A stretch of DNA of 64,000 nucleotides, taken from assembly GCA_030053925.1 (NCBI GenBank), contig JASGCX010000009.1:1-64000 (forward strand), in the 5' to 3' direction. A program made the translations under genes and the position numbers. Numbering within the stretch: position 1 is the stretch's first letter; every line of letters starts with the position of its first letter. Shown in pieces: positions 13,046-62,573 of this stretch. The notes under the pieces are model-generated. The model saw only the letters and a list, made by a program, of their open reading frames with translations. It ran no database searches and was not told where the DNA came from. The DNA comes from Flavobacterium sp. Lineage in GTDB: Bacteria; Bacteroidota; Bacteroidia; Chitinophagales; Chitinophagaceae.

Positions 13046-13070
13046 ATTTTCATCACAAACACACATATTC

Positions 13071-13405
13071 ACTTATAAAATCTGTGCAAATCTGCTTAAT
13101 GCGTGTTATCAGTGTTCCACTTTTAAAATCTGCTTAATGCGTGTAATCAGTGTTCCACTTATAAAATCTGTGCAAATTTGCTTAATCCGTGTTATCAGTG
13201 TTCCACTTTTAAAATCTGCTTAATCCGTGTTATCTGTGTTCCACTTTTAAAATCTGTGCAAATCTGCTTAATGCGTGTTATCAGAGTTCCACTTTTAAAA
13301 TCTGCTTAATCCGTGTTCCACTTTTAAAATCTGTGCAAATCTGCTTAATCCGTGTTATCAGTGTTCCACTTTTAAAATCTGCTTAATCCGTGTTATCAGT
13401 GTTCC
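13071..13405. repeat. Eight-unit intergenic repeat array alternating ~48-bp and ~38-bp units
   Basis: Units acttWtaaaatctgtgcaaatctgcttaatSCgtgttatcagtgttcc alternate with acttttaaaatctgcttaatSCgtgttatcagtgttcc (the short unit lacks 'tgtgcaaatc'). Confidence 0.9.
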
Positions 13406-18580: not shown

Positions 18581-19552
18581 CTATCCAAGAGATAAGTGAT
18601 TGATAAAAAGCGTATGTGGTGCAGACACTAAATTAATATCGAACTTCAATGAAGGTTCTATTCTTGAACTTGCATTATGGATTCTAAAAGAAATTTGCCA
18701 GCCTTCTGTCAATGACACTAACAATGTAGTTTGAGAATTGTCTTGGTAGACAATTTCAATAAGACGATTAGGTAATTTTAGTTTTTGCAATTTCAACTTT
18801 GGCTTGATACTTTCAAATGGCAGACTTAGCGTACCATGTAAATTATAAGCTTGTATTTCAACTTTATTTTTTCCTTTTATGACCTTATAAAAATCTTGAT
18901 TTCCAATTAAATATTCAACAAGCCTTTGTGCCACAATACCAGGGTTTTCCTTATCAAGTCTTATAAGTTCTTTCTTAAAAGCATCAAGAATAGGAACATA
19001 AACAGATGTATGATAATCACCCAAGGTTGACCATTTTTGAGTTGCTTTACTTGCAGTTCTCAACTTTTCTAACTCATCAAAAATTGGTTTTATTTCTGAA
19101 AAATAGTTTTCTGAGCATGGTACACCTAGCCACTTTTCACCGAAGTTTATATCACTCGACAAACGAGAGTGTTTTACAGCACGATGGTTGTTTTTTGCAG
19201 AAATTCCTATTTCCCATTTCTGCAAAGAACGTATTGCCAAAACATCTCTTACATCACCAATTTGACCTTGTTTATCAGAAACAATTTCAAGTTGCAAAAC
19301 ATCGTTTTTATTTATACCTTTTGACAAACGTGGTTCTAAATCAATAAGAAAATTGAGAGCAAAACTTGCATTCAAATTATACAATCCTTTGTCAGTATTA
19401 TTGAATGTATCAAAGCATTTTTTCGTAGTTTTTAAAGGATCATTTTCGATGACTATTACATTAGTTATAGTTTGCAATCTTTCTAAGAAAGCATTTAAAA
19501 GTGCAAATTCAAATGCCTTACCAGTTATTGTTTGTTTTGCTTCTTTTGGCAT
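18581..19552 (-). CDS. HaeIII-family restriction endonuclease (predicted GGCC)
   Basis: GKAFEFALLNAFLERLQTITNV...DVLQLEIVSDKQGQIGDVRDVLAIRSLQKWEIGISAKNNHRAVKHSRLSSDINFGEKWLG resembles R.HaeIII from memory; adjacent to an M.HaeIII-like gene. Confidence 0.88.
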   Translation of the reverse strand: MPKEAKQTITGKAFEFALLNAFLERLQTITNVIVIENDPLKTTKKCFDTFNNTDKGLYNLNASFALNFLIDLEPRLSKGINKNDVLQLEIVSDKQGQIGDVRDVLAIRSLQKWEIGISAKNNHRAVKHSRLSSDINFGEKWLGVPCSENYFSEIKPIFDELEKLRTASKATQKWSTLGDYHTSVYVPILDAFKKELIRLDKENPGIVAQRLVEYLIGNQDFYKVIKGKNKVEIQAYNLHGTLSLPFESIKPKLKLQKLKLPNRLIEIVYQDNSQTTLLVSLTEGWQISFRIHNASSRIEPSLKFDINLVSAPHTLFINHLSLG

Positions 19553-19555
19553 TAT

Positions 19556-20647
19556 CTAATGTGTTACGGCATTTACAATTTCAAGCATTTTTTTACGAAC
19601 AACATGACCATTAAAAAATTCACTGCTCTTTAAAATGCTTTGTTTTTTATTTATTTTCAAGTTGCTTAAATCATTATAAATTTTTTCGGCTAACACTTTT
19701 CCCATACGAACAGGAACAGCATTGCCAATCATTTTATAACCTGCAACAACACTATTATAATAAAAAGTAAAACTATCAGGAAAAGTTTGAATTCTTGCAC
19801 ATTCTCTTACGGACAATCTACGATACAAATGCTCTTTTCCTTTCACAAACTCACGTAGATTTTGCTCAATAAATTTCATTTTTGGTGCTTGTGGATGAAT
19901 TGGTGCATGACGACCACCAGCTTGTATTGTAAAAGAGACTTCATCCCAAGAACGCACCCTATTTCTTGACATAAAAATTGAAGAAAACCCACCAATCATA
20001 TACTCATGATTTTTAACTGTACAGTTTTCACCGTTAGTGTAGTTGCCTTCTTTCGCAGGTAAAACATTATCCTTTAAATCGCCAATAGCTTTTTCAAGTG
20101 TAATCTTTTTTTCAGGTGTTGTAGCAAGTGGGAATTGAAATTTTAAACCTAAATCTTTTCTATAGCCAATGAAAAATACACGTTTTCTATCTTGTGGTAT
20201 ACCAAAGTCAGAGACATTCAATAACTGAAACGACAAATCATAACCAATATCAGTAAACATTTGCTTTATGTTGGCCAGTGCTTCTTTATGTGCAGGCAAC
20301 AACATACCAGACACATTTTCAGCTAAAAAAAACTTAGGTTTTTTATCTGCAAGTATTCTCATAAACTCATAAAAAAGTTGACCTCTTTTATCGGCTATTC
20401 CTTTTTTAGAACCAGCTTCAGACCAACTTTGGCATGGTGGACCACCAATAATTCCATCACAATCTGGAACTTCATTTGAAGGAATATCAACGATACTTCG
20501 TCTATCTAAAACTGTATTTTTATGGTTCTTCTCGTAGGTTTCCCATATTTCTTTGTCGTATTCATTAGCCCAAATGACATCAAAACCAACTTTTTCAAAA
20601 CCTAAATCAAGACCGCCAGCACCAGCAAAGAATGACACAACTTTCAT
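19556..20647 (-). CDS. C5 cytosine DNA methyltransferase, M.HaeIII-like
   Basis: FFAGAGGLDLGFEKVGFDVIWANEYDKEIWETYEKNH, IIGGPPCQSWSEAGS, FFLAENVSGML, MIGNAVPV; likely start is internal Met at 20647. Confidence 0.93.
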   Translation of the reverse strand: MKVVSFFAGAGGLDLGFEKVGFDVIWANEYDKEIWETYEKNHKNTVLDRRSIVDIPSNEVPDCDGIIGGPPCQSWSEAGSKKGIADKRGQLFYEFMRILADKKPKFFLAENVSGMLLPAHKEALANIKQMFTDIGYDLSFQLLNVSDFGIPQDRKRVFFIGYRKDLGLKFQFPLATTPEKKITLEKAIGDLKDNVLPAKEGNYTNGENCTVKNHEYMIGGFSSIFMSRNRVRSWDEVSFTIQAGGRHAPIHPQAPKMKFIEQNLREFVKGKEHLYRRLSVRECARIQTFPDSFTFYYNSVVAGYKMIGNAVPVRMGKVLAEKIYNDLSNLKINKKQSILKSSEFFNGHVVRKKMLEIVNAVTH

Positions 20648-20824
20648 TACTAATAATTTTAGCACAAAGTAAAGGCTAAGATTGACTTGGTCAAATTTTT
20701 TTACTGACAATTGTAAAAGCGTAACCACTCACCCCTAAATAATCTGCGTTATCTGCGAAATCTGCTAGTACCAAACCTCAATTTACCATAAGTTCCTTAG
20801 CTTGCTACCTCATAAGATAACACT

Positions 20825-21905: not shown

Positions 21906-22283
21906 TAGCCTTTTTAAACACGATGGTAGCCTTTCTAAACACGATGGTATAGCTTTTAAAAGCTGGTGTAGCCTTTCTAAACACGATGGTAGCCCATCTA
22001 AACACGATGGTAGCCTTTCTAAACACGATGGTAGCCCTTCTAAATACGATGGTAGCCCTTCTAAACACGATGATAGCCTTTTTAAACACGATGGTAGCCT
22101 TTCTAAACACGATGGTAGCCTTTCTAAACACGATGGTATCCCTTCTAAACACGATGGTAGCCTTTCAAAACACCATGGTAGCCCATCTAAATACGATGGT
22201 AGCCTTTCTAAACACGATGGTAGCCTTTCTAAACACGATGGTAGCCTTTCAAAATACCATGGTATAGCTTCTAAAGGCTGGGG
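21906..22283. repeat. 21-bp tandem repeat, 18 units, consensus TAGCCTTTCTAAACACGATGG
   Basis: 18 consecutive 21-bp units read by eye with no indel; units 3 and 18 are a shared divergent variant (tatagcttYtaaaRgctgg.g). Confidence 0.97.
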
Positions 22284-22483: not shown

Positions 22484-23422
22484 ATGGCAACTACACCACT
22501 TATTATTACGGTAAAAATTGAAGAAGTAACACCAATTGGCAAGTTTATAATAGACGCTTTTGAGCGAGACATTGCCTCTATTACCGACAAATACACCAAG
22601 TACGATGCGCCCTTATTGGCCAAGCTAAAAACAAACTATGCAGCCATTAGGCAACTCATTAATCCGCAGTTGATAACTGGTAAAATAGCCAAACAAACTA
22701 GCGACATTTATACGACCCTTATGCCCTTGCTAGGCTTGCTAGATATTGTAGAAGGCTATATACATATTGCACAAGACCTTAGCGTAGCACCAAGCTATTT
22801 TGGTATTTCGGCGGTACGAAAAGCTAAAAGCAATGGCGATTTAGAAGCCATTGCCGATAAATTAAAAACCCTGTTGCAAGTAATAAACGAAAACAAAGCA
22901 GCCCTTACTGCCGAAGGTCTTAAAGCGGCTGATATTACCGCCCTGCAAAACATACAAGATACCATTGTAAACACCAAAGCCGCTAGGGCATTGCTAGAAA
23001 GAGAGAAGCAAAGCCTGATAGACAATAACCACATTGCTATTAACGATTTTTGGACTAGTCTGCTAGACATTTGCGACAAAGCCAAGCGTGTATTTAAAAC
23101 CACCGATCCTATAAAACTGCCCGACTATACCATCACGAGCTTAAAGCAAAAAGTGAGCAGAACGCTACGGCTAAATGGCATAAAAGGCAAGGTACAAAGC
23201 AATGGCAAGCTAATAGCTAGTGCTGTGGTAGAACTGCTACCGTTAGAAGCCGGTCGCCGACGTGCACACCGCACCAAAACCGATGGTTTGTACGAGATAG
23301 GTAGTGTAACTGCAGGGCCCTACCTTGTAAATGTTTCCGCCAAAAACTACCAAACCCTTACCCAAAACATTACCATAGAAAATGGGGTACTGCTAGAACA
23401 AGATTTTGAATTGATAGGCTAG
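22484..23422 (+). CDS. Hypothetical protein with C-terminal carboxypeptidase-regulatory-like domain
   Basis: C-terminus GIKGKVQSNGKLIASAVVELLPLEAGRRRAHRTKTDGLYEIGSVTAGPYLVNVSAKNYQTLTQNITIENG. Confidence 0.75.
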   Translation: MATTPLIITVKIEEVTPIGKFIIDAFERDIASITDKYTKYDAPLLAKLKTNYAAIRQLINPQLITGKIAKQTSDIYTTLMPLLGLLDIVEGYIHIAQDLSVAPSYFGISAVRKAKSNGDLEAIADKLKTLLQVINENKAALTAEGLKAADITALQNIQDTIVNTKAARALLEREKQSLIDNNHIAINDFWTSLLDICDKAKRVFKTTDPIKLPDYTITSLKQKVSRTLRLNGIKGKVQSNGKLIASAVVELLPLEAGRRRAHRTKTDGLYEIGSVTAGPYLVNVSAKNYQTLTQNITIENGVLLEQDFELIG

Positions 23423-23657
23423 GAGAAAGGGCTAACAAGTAAAAGCCGTTTAGCCGCTGTTGGGGATGCTTTTAACAATAGTTTTTTGTAATAGTTGTTG
23501 GTTGAAGACACAACAACGGCTACATAGCCTCTGCCGTGCTTGGCGACCTCACGAAACACAGAAAGTTTGCGTATAAATGGTATGTGAAGGGAGGTGTTGG
23601 GCGTAAGTTTAAACAGCATCCTACTTAAATTCAAGTTCGCATGACTTTACCGACACA

Positions 23658-23777
23658 ACCCAACGCACCAAGTCAAGCACATTTGCAAGGCACACAAAGC
23701 CGAAACACAAAAGCCAACCTTGCAAAAAAGCCTGCCTTGTGCCAACTCACAGCCCACCGCACCCCGGCTGACGAATA
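23658..23777 (+). repeat. Left copy of a divergent ~115-bp boundary element flanking the GTPase/PNP operon
   Basis: Head ACCCAACGCACCAAGTCA, tail CGGCTGACGAA; 106 bp between head and tail starts; matches the element at 30393. Confidence 0.55.
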
Positions 23778-23862: not shown

Positions 23863-25131
23863 ATGGACGATAAATTTTTACAATCACTTTTAAAAACAGG
23901 GCTGTTTGATATTGGTGACAGCGATGAAAGGTTGAAATGGCTTCAACAATCCATTACAGACTTACAAAAGAAATTGGAAGAGGATTATTCTCTTTTGCCC
24001 AAACATACTTTGGTTGCACTTGACCCAAATATATCTGACACTGAGCCGATACTAATTGAAACAGAACTAATTGTTACTGCCTACTGGAAAGCTCTTAGGG
24101 GAAAATACCCAGAAATGCCGCGGAATATTCTCAGAGGTGTAATTCTGAATTCATTAAATAATGTTGGAGTTGCAGCCCCTATCGCTGCAAGAATCATTTA
24201 CTTGACTGCACTAAATTTTTTCCCTTATGCTAAACTTAATAATGAAAAAGGTTTAGTTGAAACAATGCTAAATGAATTGGGAGAAATAGCAGAAATAAAT
24301 GCAATGGAAGAATGGTCATTGATAGAAGAAGAACCATCTCTCAAACTTGGAACCTTGAAAATAACTGACTTTAAATTCAATAAAGTAGAGCTTGATAAAT
24401 CTGAACTTAAGGCTGGAATGTTAGTGGCTATTCAAAATGGCGGAACTCAGGGGTATGGCTCAAACCATGGTGGAAATAGTACATGGGGAGAACACTTCGC
24501 AGTAAGTTCAAGCGAAGCAATAACTACCTCATTTATGAAGACATTCGATCAGTTTAACAAATCACTTACCCCAACGGCTTTTGAAACACCTATAAATAAA
24601 TTTTTTGCAGAATTCAAAAAGGCTTTAGATGCAAATCTGAAAACATCATTTGCTTCTTTGACAGCCGTTGAACGAAGGAGTAAATTGTTATGGTGGAAGG
24701 AAACTTTATATTCCCCATCTTTAAAAAGAAGTTACAGAGGATTAGATAAAAATGTATTACCAATAATAATGGGTGCAGACTTAAATAATCAAGTTCCCGA
24801 AATAACACCTATCAGTGCTGATTATCTTTTAAGAGATACATTGCTTTTATTGAACGAGAAGAAAGATGATTTGATAAAATTCACTGACTACCTGACTGCA
24901 ATTTCCGAGAACACATTGAAGTCAATTCTGAAAAATTATCTCACAACTTTGAATGAGATTGAAGGTAGAATTTCTATAACAGATTTTATCGCATTATTAC
25001 TGAACGACAGAGTGAAAATAACCGAATTATTTTCCAAAACAGGGATTAAAGAAGACGAGCAAATTTCATTAAGTGATTTATCGGTTGCGATTTTACATGA
25101 CCTTTTAACTAAAAGACTAATTTCTGAATAG
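23863..25131 (+). CDS. All-helical protein of GTPase-associated conflict system (GASH-like)
   Basis: 422 aa, largely helical in appearance, first gene of a tight operon with two GTPases and a GAP1-like protein; call rests mainly on context. Confidence 0.6.
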   Translation: MDDKFLQSLLKTGLFDIGDSDERLKWLQQSITDLQKKLEEDYSLLPKHTLVALDPNISDTEPILIETELIVTAYWKALRGKYPEMPRNILRGVILNSLNNVGVAAPIAARIIYLTALNFFPYAKLNNEKGLVETMLNELGEIAEINAMEEWSLIEEEPSLKLGTLKITDFKFNKVELDKSELKAGMLVAIQNGGTQGYGSNHGGNSTWGEHFAVSSSEAITTSFMKTFDQFNKSLTPTAFETPINKFFAEFKKALDANLKTSFASLTAVERRSKLLWWKETLYSPSLKRSYRGLDKNVLPIIMGADLNNQVPEITPISADYLLRDTLLLLNEKKDDLIKFTDYLTAISENTLKSILKNYLTTLNEIEGRISITDFIALLLNDRVKITELFSKTGIKEDEQISLSDLSVAILHDLLTKRLISE

Positions 25132-25132
25132 T

Positions 25133-26098
25133 ATGGCAGGCAAGTGTTCACATCCATCATGTTTTCCAAACGACACAGGTTGTAATGTTGAAGGCTGTTC
25201 TAACTTATCGGAATGTAAATATTACGAGAAGGGAGATACATCGGAAGAAAATCAACCAGCGGAGGAGGAATTTTATAGAATCCCGTGGACTGGAAATACT
25301 CTTGGTTTATCCGACCTCAATTTTCTGACCGCATCTACAAAACCAATTCTTGTTGGCATTGCAGGTGTTGCAAGTGCAGGAAAAACAACATTCCTAGCTT
25401 CACTCTATTGCTTGTTAAGGCATGGAAAAAAAATCGGTGGCTATAGTTTTTCAGGTTCCTTAACTCTTAATGGCTGGGAAAATATTGCATGGTATTTAAG
25501 TTGGAAAAACAATGGCAACATTCAATTCCCACCTCATACAACCAACAACTCAGGCAGAGTTCCCGGATTATTGCATTTGGCTTTGAAAAATAAAAATGGA
25601 GAAAAAAAAGATTTGATTTTTACTGATGCACCCGGAGAGTGGTTTGACCATTGGAGAAATAATGTAAATAGTGAAAACGCAAAAGGTGCAAAGTGGATAC
25701 ACGATAATTGTGATGCCTTTTTACTTTTTGCCGATTGCGATATGCTTGCAGGAAGTAAGAGAGGACAAGCAAAGTTGCAAATCAATTCAGTTGCTGATAG
25801 ATTGTTTGAAAGAATTGGTGACAGACCTTTTGGTTTAGTGTGGTCAAAATCAGATGTGGCTATATCTGACATAACCAAGGAACAAATTCTTTCACACATA
25901 AAAGAAAATCTGCTAACGCATTTCATTGAGTTTGCAACAAGTGTAAACGAAGGTGAAGGAGGTGTTTTTCATCAGAACATTTGCGAATCTATGAATTGGA
26001 TAATTGAAAAGTTAGACAGCAATATGAATATCATTCCAAAAATTTCATCCTTCAAACAAGAGGATATGTTTCTTTCAAAAAGATCAGTCAATGGATAA
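25133..26098 (+). CDS. TRAFAC-type P-loop GTPase with N-terminal Cys cluster (double-GTPase system, first GTPase)
   Basis: GVASAGKTTF (G1), FTDAPGEWF (G3), LVWSKSDVA (G4); Cys-rich N-terminus KCSHPSCFPNDTGCNVEGCSNLSECKYY. Confidence 0.8.
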   Translation: MAGKCSHPSCFPNDTGCNVEGCSNLSECKYYEKGDTSEENQPAEEEFYRIPWTGNTLGLSDLNFLTASTKPILVGIAGVASAGKTTFLASLYCLLRHGKKIGGYSFSGSLTLNGWENIAWYLSWKNNGNIQFPPHTTNNSGRVPGLLHLALKNKNGEKKDLIFTDAPGEWFDHWRNNVNSENAKGAKWIHDNCDAFLLFADCDMLAGSKRGQAKLQINSVADRLFERIGDRPFGLVWSKSDVAISDITKEQILSHIKENLLTHFIEFATSVNEGEGGVFHQNICESMNWIIEKLDSNMNIIPKISSFKQEDMFLSKRSVNG

Positions 26099-26948
26099 TA
26101 TAAGCGATAATAATGTTTTAATAATTGGCGGGCCTCATGCAGGTAAAACCCATTTTGGAGGACAACTGTATGGACGGCTTAACAGCCGTCAATTCAATTA
26201 TAAAATTGCACCTCAAAACAGACCTGCTGACCTTACTATATTCCAAGACGTTTTAGATAAATTATCGGAAGGTAAAAGAGCAGGTCATACGGAAGCATCA
26301 GCCAACAGAAACATTGAATTGAAAATTGATGATTCTAAAGGCAACAACATTGTTTTTGCTTTTCCCGATTACGCAGGAGAGCAAGTTAGAATGATTGTAG
26401 ATAGCAGAAGAGTAAATACTATTTGGAAAGAATACATTGACCAAAGCACTTCGTGGATGTTATTTGTCCGCTTAGATGAAGTACCAACAATTGAAGACAT
26501 AATTAACAAAGGAATTCCCAATGCAGAAGAAATAAAAAAAAGAAATGCTCAACCACCGCCAGTTAGAATTTCGGATGCTGCACATTTTATAGAATTACTT
26601 CAAACATTTTTATACATCAAAGGTGTTCCTTCATTTAATAAAGTAACCAAACCCAATTTGACAATTGTTCTTTCATGTTGGGATGTTTTGAATTTAGAGG
26701 GTAATGTTATTCCATCTGACTTGCTAAAGGAGAGATTACCATTGCTATTCGATTTTGTAAGTAATTCATGGCAAGAAAATTCACTTTCTGTTTTAGGGCT
26801 TTCATCTACAGAAAAAACATTAACAGATGAACCTGATGAAGATTATATTGAAAGGACACCAATAAATTTTGGGTATATCATTAACGCCAAAGGACAAAGA
26901 GAAAATGACTTAACATTATCAATTGCAAATTTCATTGGAAGAAAATAA
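26091..26948 (+). CDS. P-loop GTPase (double-GTPase system, second GTPase)
   Basis: LIIGGPHAGKTHFGGQLY (G1), FAFPDYAGEQVRMIV (G3), VLSCWDVL in the G4 position; 8-bp overlap with upstream gene. Confidence 0.8.
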   Translation: MDNISDNNVLIIGGPHAGKTHFGGQLYGRLNSRQFNYKIAPQNRPADLTIFQDVLDKLSEGKRAGHTEASANRNIELKIDDSKGNNIVFAFPDYAGEQVRMIVDSRRVNTIWKEYIDQSTSWMLFVRLDEVPTIEDIINKGIPNAEEIKKRNAQPPPVRISDAAHFIELLQTFLYIKGVPSFNKVTKPNLTIVLSCWDVLNLEGNVIPSDLLKERLPLLFDFVSNSWQENSLSVLGLSSTEKTLTDEPDEDYIERTPINFGYIINAKGQRENDLTLSIANFIGRK

Positions 26949-29900
26949 AATCATTATTCAACAAGCATACTACGGAGAAGTAAACAGGGCTCATTCATGT
27001 ATAATACAAACAACAAATGATTCCGAACTCACCTCTTTATTAATTGCTTTTTCAGACAGACCAGCGGCATTGCCGCCTGGAGTTGAACTAACACCTTACC
27101 TTTCAGGAGTAGCTTTTTCAAAGCAATATATTTTCACAAAAACTTTTCCCGACCCATTTGCAACAAGGGCAGGTATGGTTTTTACACATGCTTTAATACT
27201 CAATTTTTATGACATTTCTTCTGTCAATAATCTTGATGATATTCTATACTACTTTGTCAATGAAGTTCCAAAAGAAAGAACTGAATTGAAGCCGATAACC
27301 ATAAGCATTTCAAAAGAGAATTCAATTTCAGCGAATAGAGTTCAACCAAAATTTATTCAAGAAACTATTGCTGCTTTTATTAGCGGAACTTATCCAGTTT
27401 TATTTTCAGGAAGTATTGACTCATTTAAGATTGCACTTCAGAAAATTTGGAATTCACCAAATACCGAGTTTAGAAAAAAAATAAAATTCAGAACAAGTTT
27501 TACTCCATCGGATTTGGACGGAACAAAAGACTTGACAATAGTTTCCATACAAAAAGAATTTTTACCAAAATGGACAGGACAAAAAATCATTCAATCTGAA
27601 AACAATAAGCAAGTAGAAATCACTTCACATTCAGAGGCACTTTTTTTAGGGCATAAAAAAGACAACCCCTTTTATTCATTTTTAATTGAGTTAAATGTAA
27701 TTCAATCAGACTTTCAAGTTTTTGGTCAATGTGATAAGGTTTACAATGACTATATCAGTTTGGATAAAGTTGATGATGCCAATATTTTGAGACAAGACAT
27801 AAGATTGCTTACAAAAATATCTCCATCCCCAAACGATGGGAGAAAAGTTAAAGAACGCTTCATTAAAAGGTTGGAAGAACTTATTCAAAATGGAAAGGAT
27901 TCAAACATAAAAGCGTTAAGAAATATTGAGTGGTCAGCATTTGACAATGGAGAAGCAAAAGGAAAAGGAATTGTTTATGATTTTATTGCAAACGAACTTT
28001 TTAAAGCAACGAAGATTCCTTTATTATCAGAACTTCTAAATATTGCTTGCAGTGAGCAGCCAAAAATTTGGTGGCATAACTCAATTCAAGAATATTTTAA
28101 AATTCCACTTGCGAATTACACAAAACCCTTACTTGAGAACCTTTGGAAATTGATAGACGATTCCGAACAGTCTTGTAAAAATGTTTTTTCTCTTGTAAAT
28201 GTTTCAACTGAGAGTGAACACTCTTTGAGAAATAGTATTCCAGTAAAAATAAAGGACGAAACCTCAAAGGCACTTGAAGCCATTTCCAAAAAAAGAAAAT
28301 GGTTCTTATTTCATGCTGACCTTCTACTGAAACATTTGCTGACTGATAAAGCCATTGTAAAACAATTGGTGATTGAAGAATCTTTAAGCCTTAAAGATTC
28401 TGTTGGAGTAAAATATCTTTTCGAGAAATTAAATGATAAAGAACTAATTGCCCTAACATTATCAACCATTGACACCAAGCTAATCCAACTTACAGTAGAA
28501 AGAATTTCAAAAGATAAATCACTTCTAAAGGAAATAGATGTTAGTATTCCTTGCTGGCTAACTATCTGGTCAATGACATTGAACAAAACGAGGAACATTT
28601 CAGCAGGTATTGAAGGTAAAGAACAGGCAATAATAAATTCCGTTTTTGACTTATTGGTAAAAGAAACCCCAATTCAAGAAGTCATAATTGAGTTGATTGC
28701 AAGTTCAACTTTTGCTGACATTACGAATTACAAACAAAGAGATAAACTTTGGAAAGTTATTCCGACAAAGTTTACAGAAATATTTCTTTCTGTAACTTCA
28801 AAAAAGGTTGTGCAACAACTGTTGTCAGGAAAAGTTGATGTAAGCACAATTGAAAATCAGCTTTCAACAAAGATTACTTCTGATTCCTTCATGTCCAACT
28901 TTCTTGATGAACACAAAAACGATATTGGTAGCGTAATTAAAGTTTATGAATCATTTCCAAATCTGAAAGACGATTTTCTTTCTGAGTATATTTCATATTA
29001 CAGAAACTCAATTATAGAAATCGATGCAAAAAACCTTGGAACTTTAGTTAGCAAAAATAAATTCAACAAGTCGGCTAAAAGCATTTATGAGAAATCAAAA
29101 TACAATCACACTTTCAGGGCTGCATTTGAAATTTGTAAAGACTTGGTTACTATTGGTTTTTGGGACTCGTTTTTTCCCTCATCCGATAAACAAAAGAAGT
29201 ATAAACACGAAACAAGTAATATGCCTCAAAGCAAACAAAATGATTTACCTACTGTAGTGATTCTTACCGCAATTCAGGAAGAGTATTTAGCAGTTAAAGA
29301 ACACCTTACAAATGTTGTTGATGGTGATAGGAATAATACCGATTATGAAATCGGCATTTTTGAATATAATGGGAAAGGAATTGCAAATGTTATTATTCGT
29401 GAGTGCGGAGCAAAAAATACAACAGCTTCACAAGAAACAGAAAGAGCAATAAATTACTTTAATCCAAACATGATGATGTTTGTAGGAATTGCAGGTTCAA
29501 GAAAGCCAAATGATTTTAAGATTGGCGATGTCATTTTTCCAGATAAAATCTATTACTACGAAGGTGGCAAAGCAGCATTAAATTCTTTTAAAGCAAGACC
29601 TGATGCCGTTTCTCCAACATTTGAATTATTAGAGAAAGCAAAGAAAGAGAGAAAGAAAAAAGATTGGAGGGCAATGATAAAAGGCAATTATTCAGATTCA
29701 GTAAAAGCGAACATCGGAATCATTGCATCAGGCGAACAATTAATTGACCATCACGATTCTGAAATTGGAAAACTACTTAACGTGCACTATAATGATTCAT
29801 CTGCTGTTGAAATGGAAGGTTATGGATTTGTCAAAGCAGCAAGCAGGCAGGGAAGTGAAACAAAAAATATTATCGTTGGAGTTGTTAGAGGTATATCAGA

Positions 29901-30030
29901 TATAATTGAATTACCAGCAGACAAAGAATCAGAAGTCAGTATTGACAGAAGACCCGACAATGCAAAACTATTTGCCTCTGATACTGCTGCTGCATTTGCA
30001 TTTTGGTTGATTTTAAAAACATACGAGTAA
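26923..30030 (+). CDS. GAP1-like GTPase-associated protein fused to C-terminal PNP/nucleosidase domain
   Basis: N-terminus QQAYYGEVNRAHSCIIQTT...ALPPGVELTPYLSGVAFSKQYIFTKTFPDPFATRAGMVFTHALIL; C-terminus VVILTAIQEEYLAVKEHL...MMMFVGIAGSRKPNDFKIGDVIFPDKIYYYEGGK...SSAVEMEGYGFVKAAS...VGVVRGISDI. Confidence 0.85.
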   Translation: MQISLEENKIIIQQAYYGEVNRAHSCIIQTTNDSELTSLLIAFSDRPAALPPGVELTPYLSGVAFSKQYIFTKTFPDPFATRAGMVFTHALILNFYDISSVNNLDDILYYFVNEVPKERTELKPITISISKENSISANRVQPKFIQETIAAFISGTYPVLFSGSIDSFKIALQKIWNSPNTEFRKKIKFRTSFTPSDLDGTKDLTIVSIQKEFLPKWTGQKIIQSENNKQVEITSHSEALFLGHKKDNPFYSFLIELNVIQSDFQVFGQCDKVYNDYISLDKVDDANILRQDIRLLTKISPSPNDGRKVKERFIKRLEELIQNGKDSNIKALRNIEWSAFDNGEAKGKGIVYDFIANELFKATKIPLLSELLNIACSEQPKIWWHNSIQEYFKIPLANYTKPLLENLWKLIDDSEQSCKNVFSLVNVSTESEHSLRNSIPVKIKDETSKALEAISKKRKWFLFHADLLLKHLLTDKAIVKQLVIEESLSLKDSVGVKYLFEKLNDKELIALTLSTIDTKLIQLTVERISKDKSLLKEIDVSIPCWLTIWSMTLNKTRNISAGIEGKEQAIINSVFDLLVKETPIQEVIIELIASSTFADITNYKQRDKLWKVIPTKFTEIFLSVTSKKVVQQLLSGKVDVSTIENQLSTKITSDSFMSNFLDEHKNDIGSVIKVYESFPNLKDDFLSEYISYYRNSIIEIDAKNLGTLVSKNKFNKSAKSIYEKSKYNHTFRAAFEICKDLVTIGFWDSFFPSSDKQKKYKHETSNMPQSKQNDLPTVVILTAIQEEYLAVKEHLTNVVDGDRNNTDYEIGIFEYNGKGIANVIIRECGAKNTTASQETERAINYFNPNMMMFVGIAGSRKPNDFKIGDVIFPDKIYYYEGGKAALNSFKARPDAVSPTFELLEKAKKERKKKDWRAMIKGNYSDSVKANIGIIASGEQLIDHHDSEIGKLLNVHYNDSSAVEMEGYGFVKAASRQGSETKNIIVGVVRGISDIIELPADKESEVSIDRRPDNAKLFASDTAAAFAFWLILKTYE

Positions 30031-30039
30031 GAACTGATA

Positions 30040-30387
30040 ATGGCAATAGACTCTTTACAAACTTTAGATGTGATTGAAGCAATGGAAAATTTCATTGCAA
30101 GAAAAAGACCACCTAAACAAATCAGACGTAAATTGGATTTAGGATATAAAATTGCAGAACAAAGTATCATTGTGTTTGAGATAAGACCACAGTGGGACAA
30201 GCCAGAATTAATCAGAGAACATCCTCTTGCCAAGACAACTTTCGTGAAAGCAAAAAATCAGTGGAAAATATTTTGGTTAACAGCGGATTTAAATAGGCAC
30301 AGTTATTCACCAAAGCCGACAGTCACAACAATAGAGGAATTCAATAAACTTGTTGAAGAAGATAAACATCATTGCTTCTGGGGATAA
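30040..30387 (+). CDS. DUF3024 family protein
   Basis: RPPKQIRRKLDLGYKIAEQSIIVFEIRPQWDKP...AKTTFVKAKNQWKIFWLTADLNRHSYSPKPTVTTIEEFNKLVEEDKHHCFWG; begins 10 bp after the previous stop. Confidence 0.8.
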   Translation: MAIDSLQTLDVIEAMENFIARKRPPKQIRRKLDLGYKIAEQSIIVFEIRPQWDKPELIREHPLAKTTFVKAKNQWKIFWLTADLNRHSYSPKPTVTTIEEFNKLVEEDKHHCFWG

Positions 30388-30392
30388 AAGGA

Positions 30393-30512
30393 ATCCAACA
30401 CACCAAGGCACAGGCAACACTCTAAGGTTGGACACAGACCCACATTATAGATAAACGAGGAGAAGGGCGAACGTACAACATGGGGTTTGCCAAAATACGG
30501 GCTGACGGAAGT
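30393..30512 (+). repeat. Right copy of the divergent ~115-bp boundary element
   Basis: Head ATCCAACACACCAAGGCA, tail GGGCTGACGGAA; 105 bp between head and tail starts. Confidence 0.55.
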
Positions 30513-30741
30513 TATCTTCAGCTTTTTGTAATTCTATTGTGCTTCATATCCAGCTTGTCGTAATTCTATTTAGCTTTTGTTTGTTATCTTCATCATCAGT
30601 TTTTCAATCGGCTTTAGTTGCCGGGCGGACACAGCAACAATTCCAGCCCTGCAGCAATACCTGCCCATTTGCAGTAATTTTTTTAAACTCTCAACTTTAA
30701 AGCTAAATATAATTTTAATAACACAAAAAACGACAACTGCT

Positions 30742-30837
30742 ATGAACAAAAAATTAATTATCTCTACCCTTAGAAAAAATGGTTATAAAGTTGGTGCAAT
30801 AAAACGAGCAATTGGAAGATTACATTCACCCAAATAA
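30742..30837 (+). CDS. Possible 31-aa microprotein
   Basis: MNKKLIISTLRKNGYKVGAIKRAIGRLHSPK; basic; the longer upstream ORF is not credible. Confidence 0.3.
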   Translation: MNKKLIISTLRKNGYKVGAIKRAIGRLHSPK

Positions 30838-30930
30838 TAATCGTTCAGACATAATTTGTGTTTATGGCAATTGGTATTACTAATAATACTCAAATTAGAA
30901 CACCGAGGGAAATTTTAAAACTAAATAATA

Positions 30931-31104
30931 ATGATTAACAATAAAACAATACCAGCACCAATAGTGGGTTTTAATGCCGTTGAAGCAATGCGTGAAGCAA
31001 GAGAAAAATTAAGCGAAAAATATTGGCAGCACACGGATGTATTAAAAAAAGACATGCTAGAAGTTAGAAAAAAATACAATTTTAAACCTTCAAAAACAAA
31101 TTAG
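30931..31104 (+). CDS. Possible 57-aa small protein of unknown function
   Basis: MINNKTIPAPIVGFNAVEAMREAREKLSEKYWQHTDVLKKDMLEVRKKYNFKPSKTN read directly from sequence; below the ORF track size cutoff. Confidence 0.4.
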   Translation: MINNKTIPAPIVGFNAVEAMREAREKLSEKYWQHTDVLKKDMLEVRKKYNFKPSKTN

Positions 31105-49888: not shown

Positions 49889-50134
49889 TTACCAATATTG
49901 GGTTCAATAGTTCATCGGCTAATAATTGATTCCTGATATTGAGTTCAAAAGTTCACAAGCAAGTTTTTTCTTCCTGATATTGAGTTCAACAGTTCACAAG
50001 CAAGTTTTTGCTTCCTGATATTGATTTCAAAAATCTACAAGCAACTATTTGCTTCCTGATATTTAGTTCAACAGTTCATAAGCAAGTTTTTGCTTCCTGA
50101 TATTGGGTTCAAAAATTCATGTGCTGCTTTTTGC
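49889..50134. repeat. 41-bp tandem repeat, 6 units
   Basis: Units start at 49889, 49930, 49971, 50012, 50053 and 50094; consensus ttcctgatattgagttcaacagttcacaagcaagtttttgc. Confidence 0.93.
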
Positions 50135-62213: not shown

Positions 62214-62463
62214 TTTACTTAACTTTTTTATTGTGTCACATTTAGTTCTACTTTTTTTAATTTATTTACTCACCTTACGCACAATGCAGAAACAGTTACT
62301 GCCGTTAAAATTGTAGAAATCATAGTTGTTATTTTGTATTTAGTTTTTGCAATTTATTTTGCTAAAATATGGTTCTATTGTATGCTATCAAAGTATTTTC
62401 TTTCATCTATACCTGTACTATTGTCTACTACTTAAAAGTGTCATTTTTGCCAATGGCAAAATC

Positions 62464-62573
62464 AAAGGAGGTTTTAGTAAAAACCAAAGGAGGTTTTACC
62501 TAAAACCAAAGGAGGTTTTACCTAAAACCAAAGGAGGTTTTGGTAGCTGCCAAAGGAGGCTTTATTTGGCTCG
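62464..62573. repeat. 22-bp tandem repeat, 5 units, consensus aaaggaggttttacctaaaacc
   Basis: Units start at 62464, 62486, 62508, 62530 and 62552 without indels. Confidence 0.93.

What the first reader, a model, noticed from the sequence alone, without database searches (positions are those of the whole stretch)
23863..30387. Five-gene GTPase-centred conflict (probable anti-phage) operon with a fused PNP/nucleosidase effector
Seen: genes of 422, 321, 285, 1035 and 115 aa on one strand, with overlaps of 8 and 26 bp and gaps of 1 and 9 bp. Two are P-loop GTPases with recognisable G1 and G3. The 1035-aa protein joins a long GAP1-like region to a C-terminal PNP-fold domain (VGIAGS, AVEMEGYGF, VRGISD). 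Established knowledge: double-GTPase/GAP1/GASH gene sets were described computationally as NTP-dependent biological conflict systems by the Aravind group, and PNP-fold nucleosidases act as ATP-cleaving effectors in CBASS, Detocs and related systems. Inference: the GTPases sense or regulate and the C-terminal domain depletes a nucleotide on activation. I am not aware of an experimental characterisation of this architecture.
Basis: partly seen in the sequence, partly recalled or inferred. Interest (0 to 1): 0.85.

Follow-up and report, generated by a model that had tools for sequence, protein, structure and literature searches.

The report
GTPase-switched nucleosidase defence operon in a cassette
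Four neighbouring genes form a predicted bacterial immune switch (two GTPases, a helical partner and a scaffold carrying a nucleotide-destroying enzyme) of a type already described by computer, and the operon sits in a hairpin-bordered DNA cassette whose borders also enclose restriction and other anti-phage systems elsewhere in this genome and in related ones.

Summary
In detail: the five ORFs and their spacing are exact. Pfam confirms GASH, ZnR-DO-GTPase2, DO-GTPase1, and GAP1-N1 fused to a PNP_UDP_1 domain with all MTAN-type catalytic residues. This is the GAP1-N1 GTPase-centric conflict system that Kaur et al. 2020 (PMC7159879) predicted, PNPase effectors included. Gene 5 (DUF3024, PADLOC candidate PDC-S43) is a passenger, found in none of 88 other loci. 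Core order GASH>DO2>DO1>GAP1 holds in 77 of 80 loci; the other three are cut by contig ends. The effector varies: caspase-EAD1, PNP-EAD1, TIR and others. The fused GAP1-PNP form is one clade (10 rows, SH-aLRT 99), nested among loci that encode PNP-EAD1 as a separate gene. No experimental test was found.

Less expected: the five genes lie between attC-like hairpin sites of a dispersed family (covarying outer stem, ACA/AGA spacer). In this genome five other same-strand site pairs enclose type I, II (two) and III-like R-M and a Septu-like system. In relatives 5 of 11 pairs enclose R-M or Wadjet. The same hairpin flanks the four-gene operon in Rhodonellum and Luteirhabdus. No integron integrase passed the curated cut-off. 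Function and mobility remain inferred.

The parts
23863..25131 (+). GASH: GTPase-associated system all-helical protein (422 aa)
   Evidence: Pfam PF19994 1.9e-59; AlphaFold pLDDT 88.2, nearly all helical, no PDB fold match at E<=0.001
25133..26098 (+). DO-GTPase2 with N-terminal Cys-rich (zinc-ribbon-like) segment (321 aa); G1 AGKT, G3 DAPGE, G4 WSKSD
   Evidence: Pfam PF19993 3.9e-62; G83 K84 T85, D165, G168, E169, K239 and D241 invariant in 9 divergent relatives
26091..26948 (+). DO-GTPase1 (285 aa); G1 GPHAGKT, G3 DYAGE
   Evidence: Pfam PF19975 6.5e-72; Walker A Lys and the Glu of DxxGE invariant in 86/86 sequences
26935..30030 (+). GAP1-PNP fusion (1031 aa from TTG 26935, or 1035 aa from TTG 26923): GAP1-N1 + helical solenoid + disordered linker + PNP/MTAN-fold domain (DNA about 29251-30027); catalytic residues E787, M964/E965, D993 in the 1035-aa numbering
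   Evidence: PF20012 1.3e-23 and PF01048 1.3e-19; invariant E, ME and SD in 20 PNP domains; AlphaFold pLDDT 91.5 with a disordered linker at 747-766 of the 1031-aa model; Foldseek to MTANs E 6e-12, TMt 0.84
30040..30387 (+). DUF3024 protein (115 aa), passenger inside the same cassette
   Evidence: PF11225 1.1e-29; PADLOC PDC-S43 1.5e-42, full length; absent from 88 other system loci
23601..23657 (+). left extension shared with other left-border sites
   Evidence: similarity at C55, C8, C118 and C76 of the same genome
23660..23750 (+). left border hairpin: outer stem 23670-23678/23730-23738, ACA/AAA spacer, inner stem 23682-23690/23718-23726, 27-nt loop
   Evidence: model R1 E 1.5e-22; hairpin scan and pair counts
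30395..30660 (+). right border: collapsed site (CCAACACACCAAGGCACAGG) running into the right extension 30403-30660
   Evidence: right extension 80-89% identical at C55, C57 and C76, where it directly abuts the left hairpin

Best explanation
The four genes 23863-30030 are a GAP1-N1-type DO-GTPase conflict system. GASH and GAP1 form the platform, the two DO-GTPases are a paired nucleotide switch that keeps the complex off, and the PNP/MTAN-fold domain tethered to GAP1 by a flexible linker is the effector. On an invasion signal (sensor step unknown; GAP1's helical solenoid or GASH are candidates) the GTPases change state and release or cluster the nucleosidase. It then hydrolyses the N-glycosidic bond of a purine nucleotide (ATP/dATP most likely by analogy) and arrests the infected cell. 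The operon, with a DUF3024 passenger, is cargo of a cassette bordered by attC-like hairpin sites. Shown here: genes, domains, conserved active sites, constant core with variable effector, fused clade nested beside two-gene EAD1 arrangements, transfer of the operon as a unit, cassette borders. Inferred: GTPase gating, substrate, cell arrest, anti-phage role, mobility of the cassette.
For: Domains. Core complete and in order in 77/80 loci, the other three being contig-end cuts; median intergenic distance -4 bp. PNP in 28 of those 80 loci, in three arrangements: fused to GAP1, downstream gene, upstream gene. EAD1 sits on both GAP1 and the separate PNP protein in L049 and L050, and neither EAD1 is found in the fused proteins. 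Other loci carry caspase (33 of 58 flanking genes scanned), TIR, SEFIR or SLATT instead. Fused clade of 10 rows, SH-aLRT 99, nested beside loci with a separate PNP gene. MTAN fold and catalytic residues. Transfer as a unit: Luteirhabdus and Rhodonellum, of different families, share 87.9% DNA identity over the operon plus about 100-140 bp each side and nothing else in 17 kb. Systems also on conjugative plasmids and a Leptospira phage record. Cassette borders.
Against: No phage challenge or enzyme assay exists for this architecture in the papers searched. The core four proteins have no strong PADLOC match; only the PNP domain does. Closest solved structures are MTA/SAH nucleosidases, not ATP nucleosidases. 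No SLOG domain as in Cap17. DO-GTPase1 lacks the Lys of a canonical NKxD G4 (SCWD), so guanine specificity of that subunit is uncertain.
Confidence: 0.62

Rival explanations
1. The PNP domain is a signalling enzyme, not the killer: it makes a nucleotide-derived second messenger, and a separate effector responds.
For: Kaur et al. propose this for PNPase domains in sister systems and note SLATT pore partners in some GAP1-N1 systems. One SLATT_1 match among 58 flanking genes here.
Against: No SLATT or other responder lies in the window operon or in the compact fused relatives; DUF3024 has no known ligand-binding fold and is not conserved with the system. The PNP domain occupies the place of direct effectors such as caspase in sister loci.
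Confidence: 0.2
2. The system is a stress or housekeeping regulator using an MTA/SAH-type nucleosidase, not an immune system.
For: The nearest solved structures are MTANs.
Against: Patchy distribution (about 1% of sampled genomes of the phylum), recent cross-family transfer, plasmid and phage-record carriage, variable effectors, and defence-rich cassette company.
Confidence: 0.1
3. All five genes are one system and DUF3024 is an essential effector or immunity factor.
For: 9-bp gap, same strand, inside the same borders; PADLOC lists the family as candidate PDC-S43.
Against: No DUF3024 in 88 other system loci, including ten with the same GAP1-PNP fusion; on plasmids it occurs beside unrelated genes.
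Confidence: 0.07
4. The border hairpins are ordinary dispersed repeats or terminators with no role in moving cargo.
For: No recombinase gene was found linked to them; many single copies; some enclosed segments are not defence genes.
Against: Same-strand pairs enclose discrete accessory operons in many genomes; left and right flanks are joined without the operon at three other places; diverged hairpins mark the edges of a transferred operon in other families; no U-tract as in terminators.
Confidence: 0.3

Closest known systems
GAP1-N1-containing GTPase-centric conflict systems (Kaur, Burroughs, Iyer, Aravind 2020, eLife, PMC7159879)
   Same: GAP1-N1, GASH, two DO-GTPases of which one with a zinc-ribbon N-terminus, variable effector; PNPase effectors and effectors fused to GAP1 were already described
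   Different: Here: phylogenetic evidence that the GAP1-PNP fusion is a derived clade in which both EAD1 domains are gone, and evidence for a hairpin-bordered cassette
PNP-domain ATP nucleosidases of CBASS/Detocs and others (Cap17; Rousset et al. 2023, known here through PMC10952713 and PMC11249213)
   Same: PNP superfamily effector domain within a defence-type operon
   Different: No TIR/PNP-associated SLOG domain and no two-component or cyclase partners; the domain is attached to GAP1; substrate unknown
MTA/SAH nucleosidase (MTAN)
   Same: Fold and catalytic E/E/D residues
   Different: Small free-standing metabolic enzyme; here a C-terminal module of a 1031-aa scaffold protein
Integron gene cassettes and attC sites
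   Same: Single-strand hairpin site at cassette ends, stem-spacer-stem-loop plan with variable stem sequence, mostly accessory cargo, same-strand sites
   Different: No IntI over cut-off in 17 site-bearing genomes; no complementary RYYYAAC/GTTRRRY ends; multi-gene cassettes of 2.5-10 kb dispersed round the genome, not in an array

Membership tests
GAP1-N1 DO-GTPase conflict system | GAP1-N1 domain protein downstream of a DO-GTPase gene | tested here: met
   PF20012 1.3e-23; gene order
GAP1-N1 DO-GTPase conflict system | GASH protein | tested here: met
   PF19994 1.9e-59
GAP1-N1 DO-GTPase conflict system | Two DO-GTPases with a conserved Glu after the Walker B DxxG | tested here: met
   PF19993 and PF19975; DxxGE invariant
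GAP1-N1 DO-GTPase conflict system | N-terminal zinc ribbon on one DO-GTPase | tested here: inconclusive
   Cys-rich N-terminus in the window and most relatives, but no Pfam zinc-ribbon hit
GAP1-N1 DO-GTPase conflict system | Variable effector fused to GAP1 or coupled by EAD1/GAAD | tested here: met
   PNP fused here; EAD1 and GAAD versions in relatives
GAP1-N1 DO-GTPase conflict system | Acts against invaders such as phages | not testable with these tools
   Predicted only in the source paper as well
PNP-superfamily nucleosidase | PNP_UDP_1 fold with catalytic Glu, Met-Glu and Asp | tested here: met
Cap17/Detocs-type ATP nucleosidase | SLOG (PF18178) domain with PNP; Detocs or CBASS partner genes | tested here: not met
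   no PF18178 in the 1035-aa protein and no such genes in the operon
Cap17/Detocs-type ATP nucleosidase | Cleaves ATP to adenine and ribose-5'-triphosphate | not testable with these tools
   needs an enzyme assay
Integron (for the cassette) | Integron integrase IntI in the genome | tested here: not met
   TIGR02249 over cut-off in 0 of 17 site-bearing genomes; drafts, so absence is not final
Integron (for the cassette) | attC with inverted R boxes RYYYAAC/GTTRRRY | tested here: not met
   CCAAC-type left ends with no complementary right end, by reading the sites
Integron (for the cassette) | Folded stem-spacer-stem site with variable loop | tested here: met

The most novel reading that the evidence does not exclude
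Bacteroidota carry an unrecognised class of mobile gene cassettes: multi-gene accessory operons, rich in anti-phage systems, bordered by dispersed attC-like single-strand hairpin sites and moved by an unidentified recombinase other than a standard IntI. The DO-GTPase/GAP1-PNP operon is one such cargo.
Probability: 0.4. Interest if true: 0.85.

Novelty: new member of a known kind. Interest (0 to 1): 0.6.

Why it matters
The operon is a compact test case for a predicted but apparently untested class of bacterial immunity, a GTPase switch controlling a nucleotide-destroying enzyme, with switch and effector in four genes and obvious point mutants. The border sites matter more if they prove mobile: they would explain how unrelated defence systems (R-M, Septu, Wadjet, DO-GTPase) spread as units among Bacteroidota, where complete integrons are rarely found (PMC9024848), and the sites could be used to find new defence systems by their address.

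Tried and rejected
A genome-contig scan with the single GAP1-PNP protein found nothing; an alignment of DO-GTPase2 gave 80 loci. PADLOC does not recognise the core four proteins. GASH fold search in the PDB gave no significant match. The top 50 PDB fold matches of GAP1-PNP are all MTAN-type nucleosidases aligned over about 260 columns, so they say nothing about GAP1 itself. E. coli genomes: no DNA match. Rfam: nothing in the window. Integron hypothesis: IntI-like tyrosine recombinases exist, but none passes the cut-off and only one site lies near any of the 17 regions fetched; one such gene is followed by a gene that resembles an IS91-type transposase by eye. 'Cassettes always carry defence' was rejected: 6 of 11 relatives' pairs hold other or unclear cargo (TonB/PepSY-like, metal/CrcB-like, Hsp70-like, kinase/PP2C-like, MazG/UDG-like, a large secreted protein; most named by eye). 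RNAalifold on the mixed site alignment A10 found only 3 pairs; the stems appeared only when sites were aligned by their hairpin arms.
Full report
OBSERVATION. Pfam assigns them without ambiguity: GASH, DO-GTPase2 with a Cys-rich N-terminus, DO-GTPase1, GAP1-N1 plus a C-terminal PNP_UDP_1 domain, and DUF3024. The 1035-aa protein more likely starts at the TTG at 26935, because relatives begin at the matching residue.

WHAT THE OPERON IS. Kaur et al. 2020 (PMC7159879) described GAP1-N1-containing GTPase-centric systems: GAP1, GASH, two DO-GTPases (one with a zinc ribbon) and variable effectors that include PNPase and TIR, sometimes fused to GAP1, sometimes coupled through EAD1 or GAAD. The window operon meets the sequence-testable features, with the zinc ribbon only suggested by its cysteines. 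Later papers found in the library do not test it; most subscription journals and most preprints are outside that library.

CONSERVATION. A scan of 85,488 species genomes with a DO-GTPase2 alignment gave 80 loci in Bacteroidota, Balneolota, Proteobacteria, Actinobacteria, Myxococcota and other phyla. In 77 the four core genes stand in the same order on one strand with a median spacing of -4 bp; L081, L093 and L121 are cut by contig ends. DUF3024 is beside the system only in the window. In the sampled phylum the GAP1-N1 domain occurs in about 1% of genomes.

EFFECTOR MODULARITY. Of 58 genes flanking the core in relatives, 40 match EAD1, 33 a caspase domain and 8 PNP_UDP_1, with TIR, SEFIR, SLATT, alpha/beta-hydrolase and others once or twice. 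PNP occurs in three arrangements: fused to GAP1 (11 of 86 tree rows), downstream gene (10), upstream gene (11). On a tree of the concatenated GTPases, ten fused rows, the window among them, form one group (SH-aLRT 99), next to loci with a separate downstream PNP gene (L049, L050, L051); one distant verrucomicrobial locus (L054, long branch) looks like a second fusion. In L049 and L050 both GAP1 and the PNP protein end in EAD1 (weak matches, E 0.02 to 4e-6); the fused proteins have none. The simplest reading, an inference, is that a PNP-EAD1 partner recruited in trans became covalently attached and both EAD1 copies were lost. The tree was built with the quick method and warns of long branches.

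EFFECTOR CHEMISTRY. Twenty PNP domains keep E787, M964-E965 and D993 (window numbering) invariant. A profile of them finds MTA/SAH nucleosidases in the PDB (E to 1.5e-22), and AlphaFold (pLDDT 91.5; disordered linker 747-766) plus Foldseek give MTANs (E 6e-12, TMt 0.84). PDB entries titled Glu12Gln and Asp197Asn MTAN mark the equivalent catalytic residues. So the domain should hydrolyse an N-glycosidic bond. ATP as substrate is an analogy with Cap17/Detocs effectors, which carry a SLOG domain that is missing here.

SWITCH AND SCAFFOLD. Both GTPases keep Walker A and DxxGE; DO-GTPase2 has a WSKSD G4 motif, DO-GTPase1 has SCWD. GASH is predicted to be helical at high confidence and matches nothing in the PDB. 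GAP1 is an alpha/beta N-terminus followed by a long helical solenoid. Gating by the GTPases and sensing by GAP1 or GASH are inference.

MOBILITY OF THE OPERON. Luteirhabdus pelagi (Flavobacteriaceae) and Rhodonellum psychrophilum (Cytophagaceae) share 87.9% DNA identity over the four genes plus 100-140 bp either side and nothing more in 17-kb loci. Related systems sit on conjugative plasmids, and a Leptospira phage record holds GASH, both GTPases, GAP1 and a PNP gene followed by an integrase.

THE CASSETTE. The noncoding DNA on both sides of the five genes recurs round the same draft genome. At C55, C57 and C76 the left-border and right-border sequences are joined without the operon. The motif at the left border occurs only at 23660 and 30395 in the 64-kb window and 29 times in the genome against 2 for the reversed control pattern. 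A model of the site (R1, mostly sequence; built from 12 own-genome copies) gives 16 own sites at E<0.01. Five same-strand pairs enclose, in order: a PtuA/PtuB Septu-like module (C55), a C5-methylase plus HNH type II R-M (C8), a type II R-M with two methylases (C57), a type III-like R-M with a Schlafen-AlbA protein (C76) and a type I R-M (C118, HsdR by Pfam and the other subunits by sequence reading). The window operon is the sixth; its right site is collapsed and recognised by its right extension.

TEST IN RELATIVES. R1 hits 26 of the 151 genomes searched, the window's own included (E<=0.001), most in the same family. Of 11 same-strand pairs there, five enclose clear defence systems (two type III R-M, two type II R-M, one Wadjet JetC/JetD); six enclose other or unclear cargo, mostly judged by reading. 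So the sites border accessory modules, rich in but not limited to defence. I did not measure the background rate over random segments.

SITE STRUCTURE. Sites fold as outer stem (9 bp, variable), ACA/AGA spacer, inner stem TTTGCAAGG/CCTTGCAAA, loop mostly 24-28 nt. On 15 distinct sites, 92.6% of cells pair, 13 of 18 pairs show changes on both sides (45 cells against 13.8 in shuffles, 0 of 500 as high), and sliding the register destroys it. Caveat: the scan kept only sites with at least 7/9 and 6/9 pairs, which inflates these figures, and 12% of random stretches also pass that filter; single-sequence folding z-scores are modest (-0.7 to -2.3). The same hairpin plan with different stem letters stands at both ends of the transferred block in Rhodonellum, and at the right end in Luteirhabdus by the same filter; R1 alone scores the left ones only weakly (E 0.005-0.017), and these loci are homologous, so they count as one observation.

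WHAT MOVES IT. Integron integrase TIGR02249 passes its cut-off in none of 17 site-bearing genomes, and of 17 regions fetched around IntI-like genes only one has a site nearby. Classical integrons are very rare in Bacteroidetes (PMC9024848). The mover, if any, is unknown. Most genomes are drafts, so missing genes are weak evidence.

VERDICT. The unexpected result is the border sites and the company they keep.

Noticed in passing
18581-20728 (-): HaeIII-type restriction endonuclease (PF09556) and C5-cytosine methyltransferase just upstream of the cassette, not enclosed by its border sites.
   Followed up: partly
21906-22264: Tandem array of 17 copies of a 21-bp unit (TAGCCTTTCTAAACACGATGG) that is open in frame on both strands (NTMVAFL-type and FRKATIV-type repeats).
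   Followed up: no
22484-23422 (+): 312-aa protein with a C-terminal CarboxypepD_reg domain, between the tandem array and the cassette's left border; role unknown.
   Followed up: no
13070-13405, 49895-50119, 53-233, 62458-62541: Further tandem repeat arrays (periods 86/38, 82/41, 7 and 22 bp) in the window.
   Followed up: no
L262 (relative G128): Hairpin-bordered 10-kb module with kinase-, PP2C- and FHA-like proteins (judged by eye); possible uncharacterised conflict system.
   Followed up: no
L265 (relative G809): Hairpin-bordered module with an Hsp70-like ATPase and partners (judged by eye; no PADLOC match for the Hsp70-like protein).
   Followed up: no
L122 (KF114878.1 9594-22382): Leptospira phage record carrying a whole DO-GTPase/GAP1/PNP system beside an integrase gene.
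   Followed up: partly
30577-31104: Short broken-looking ORFs between the cassette's right border and the DUF2200 gene, partly repeated elsewhere in the genome.
   Followed up: no
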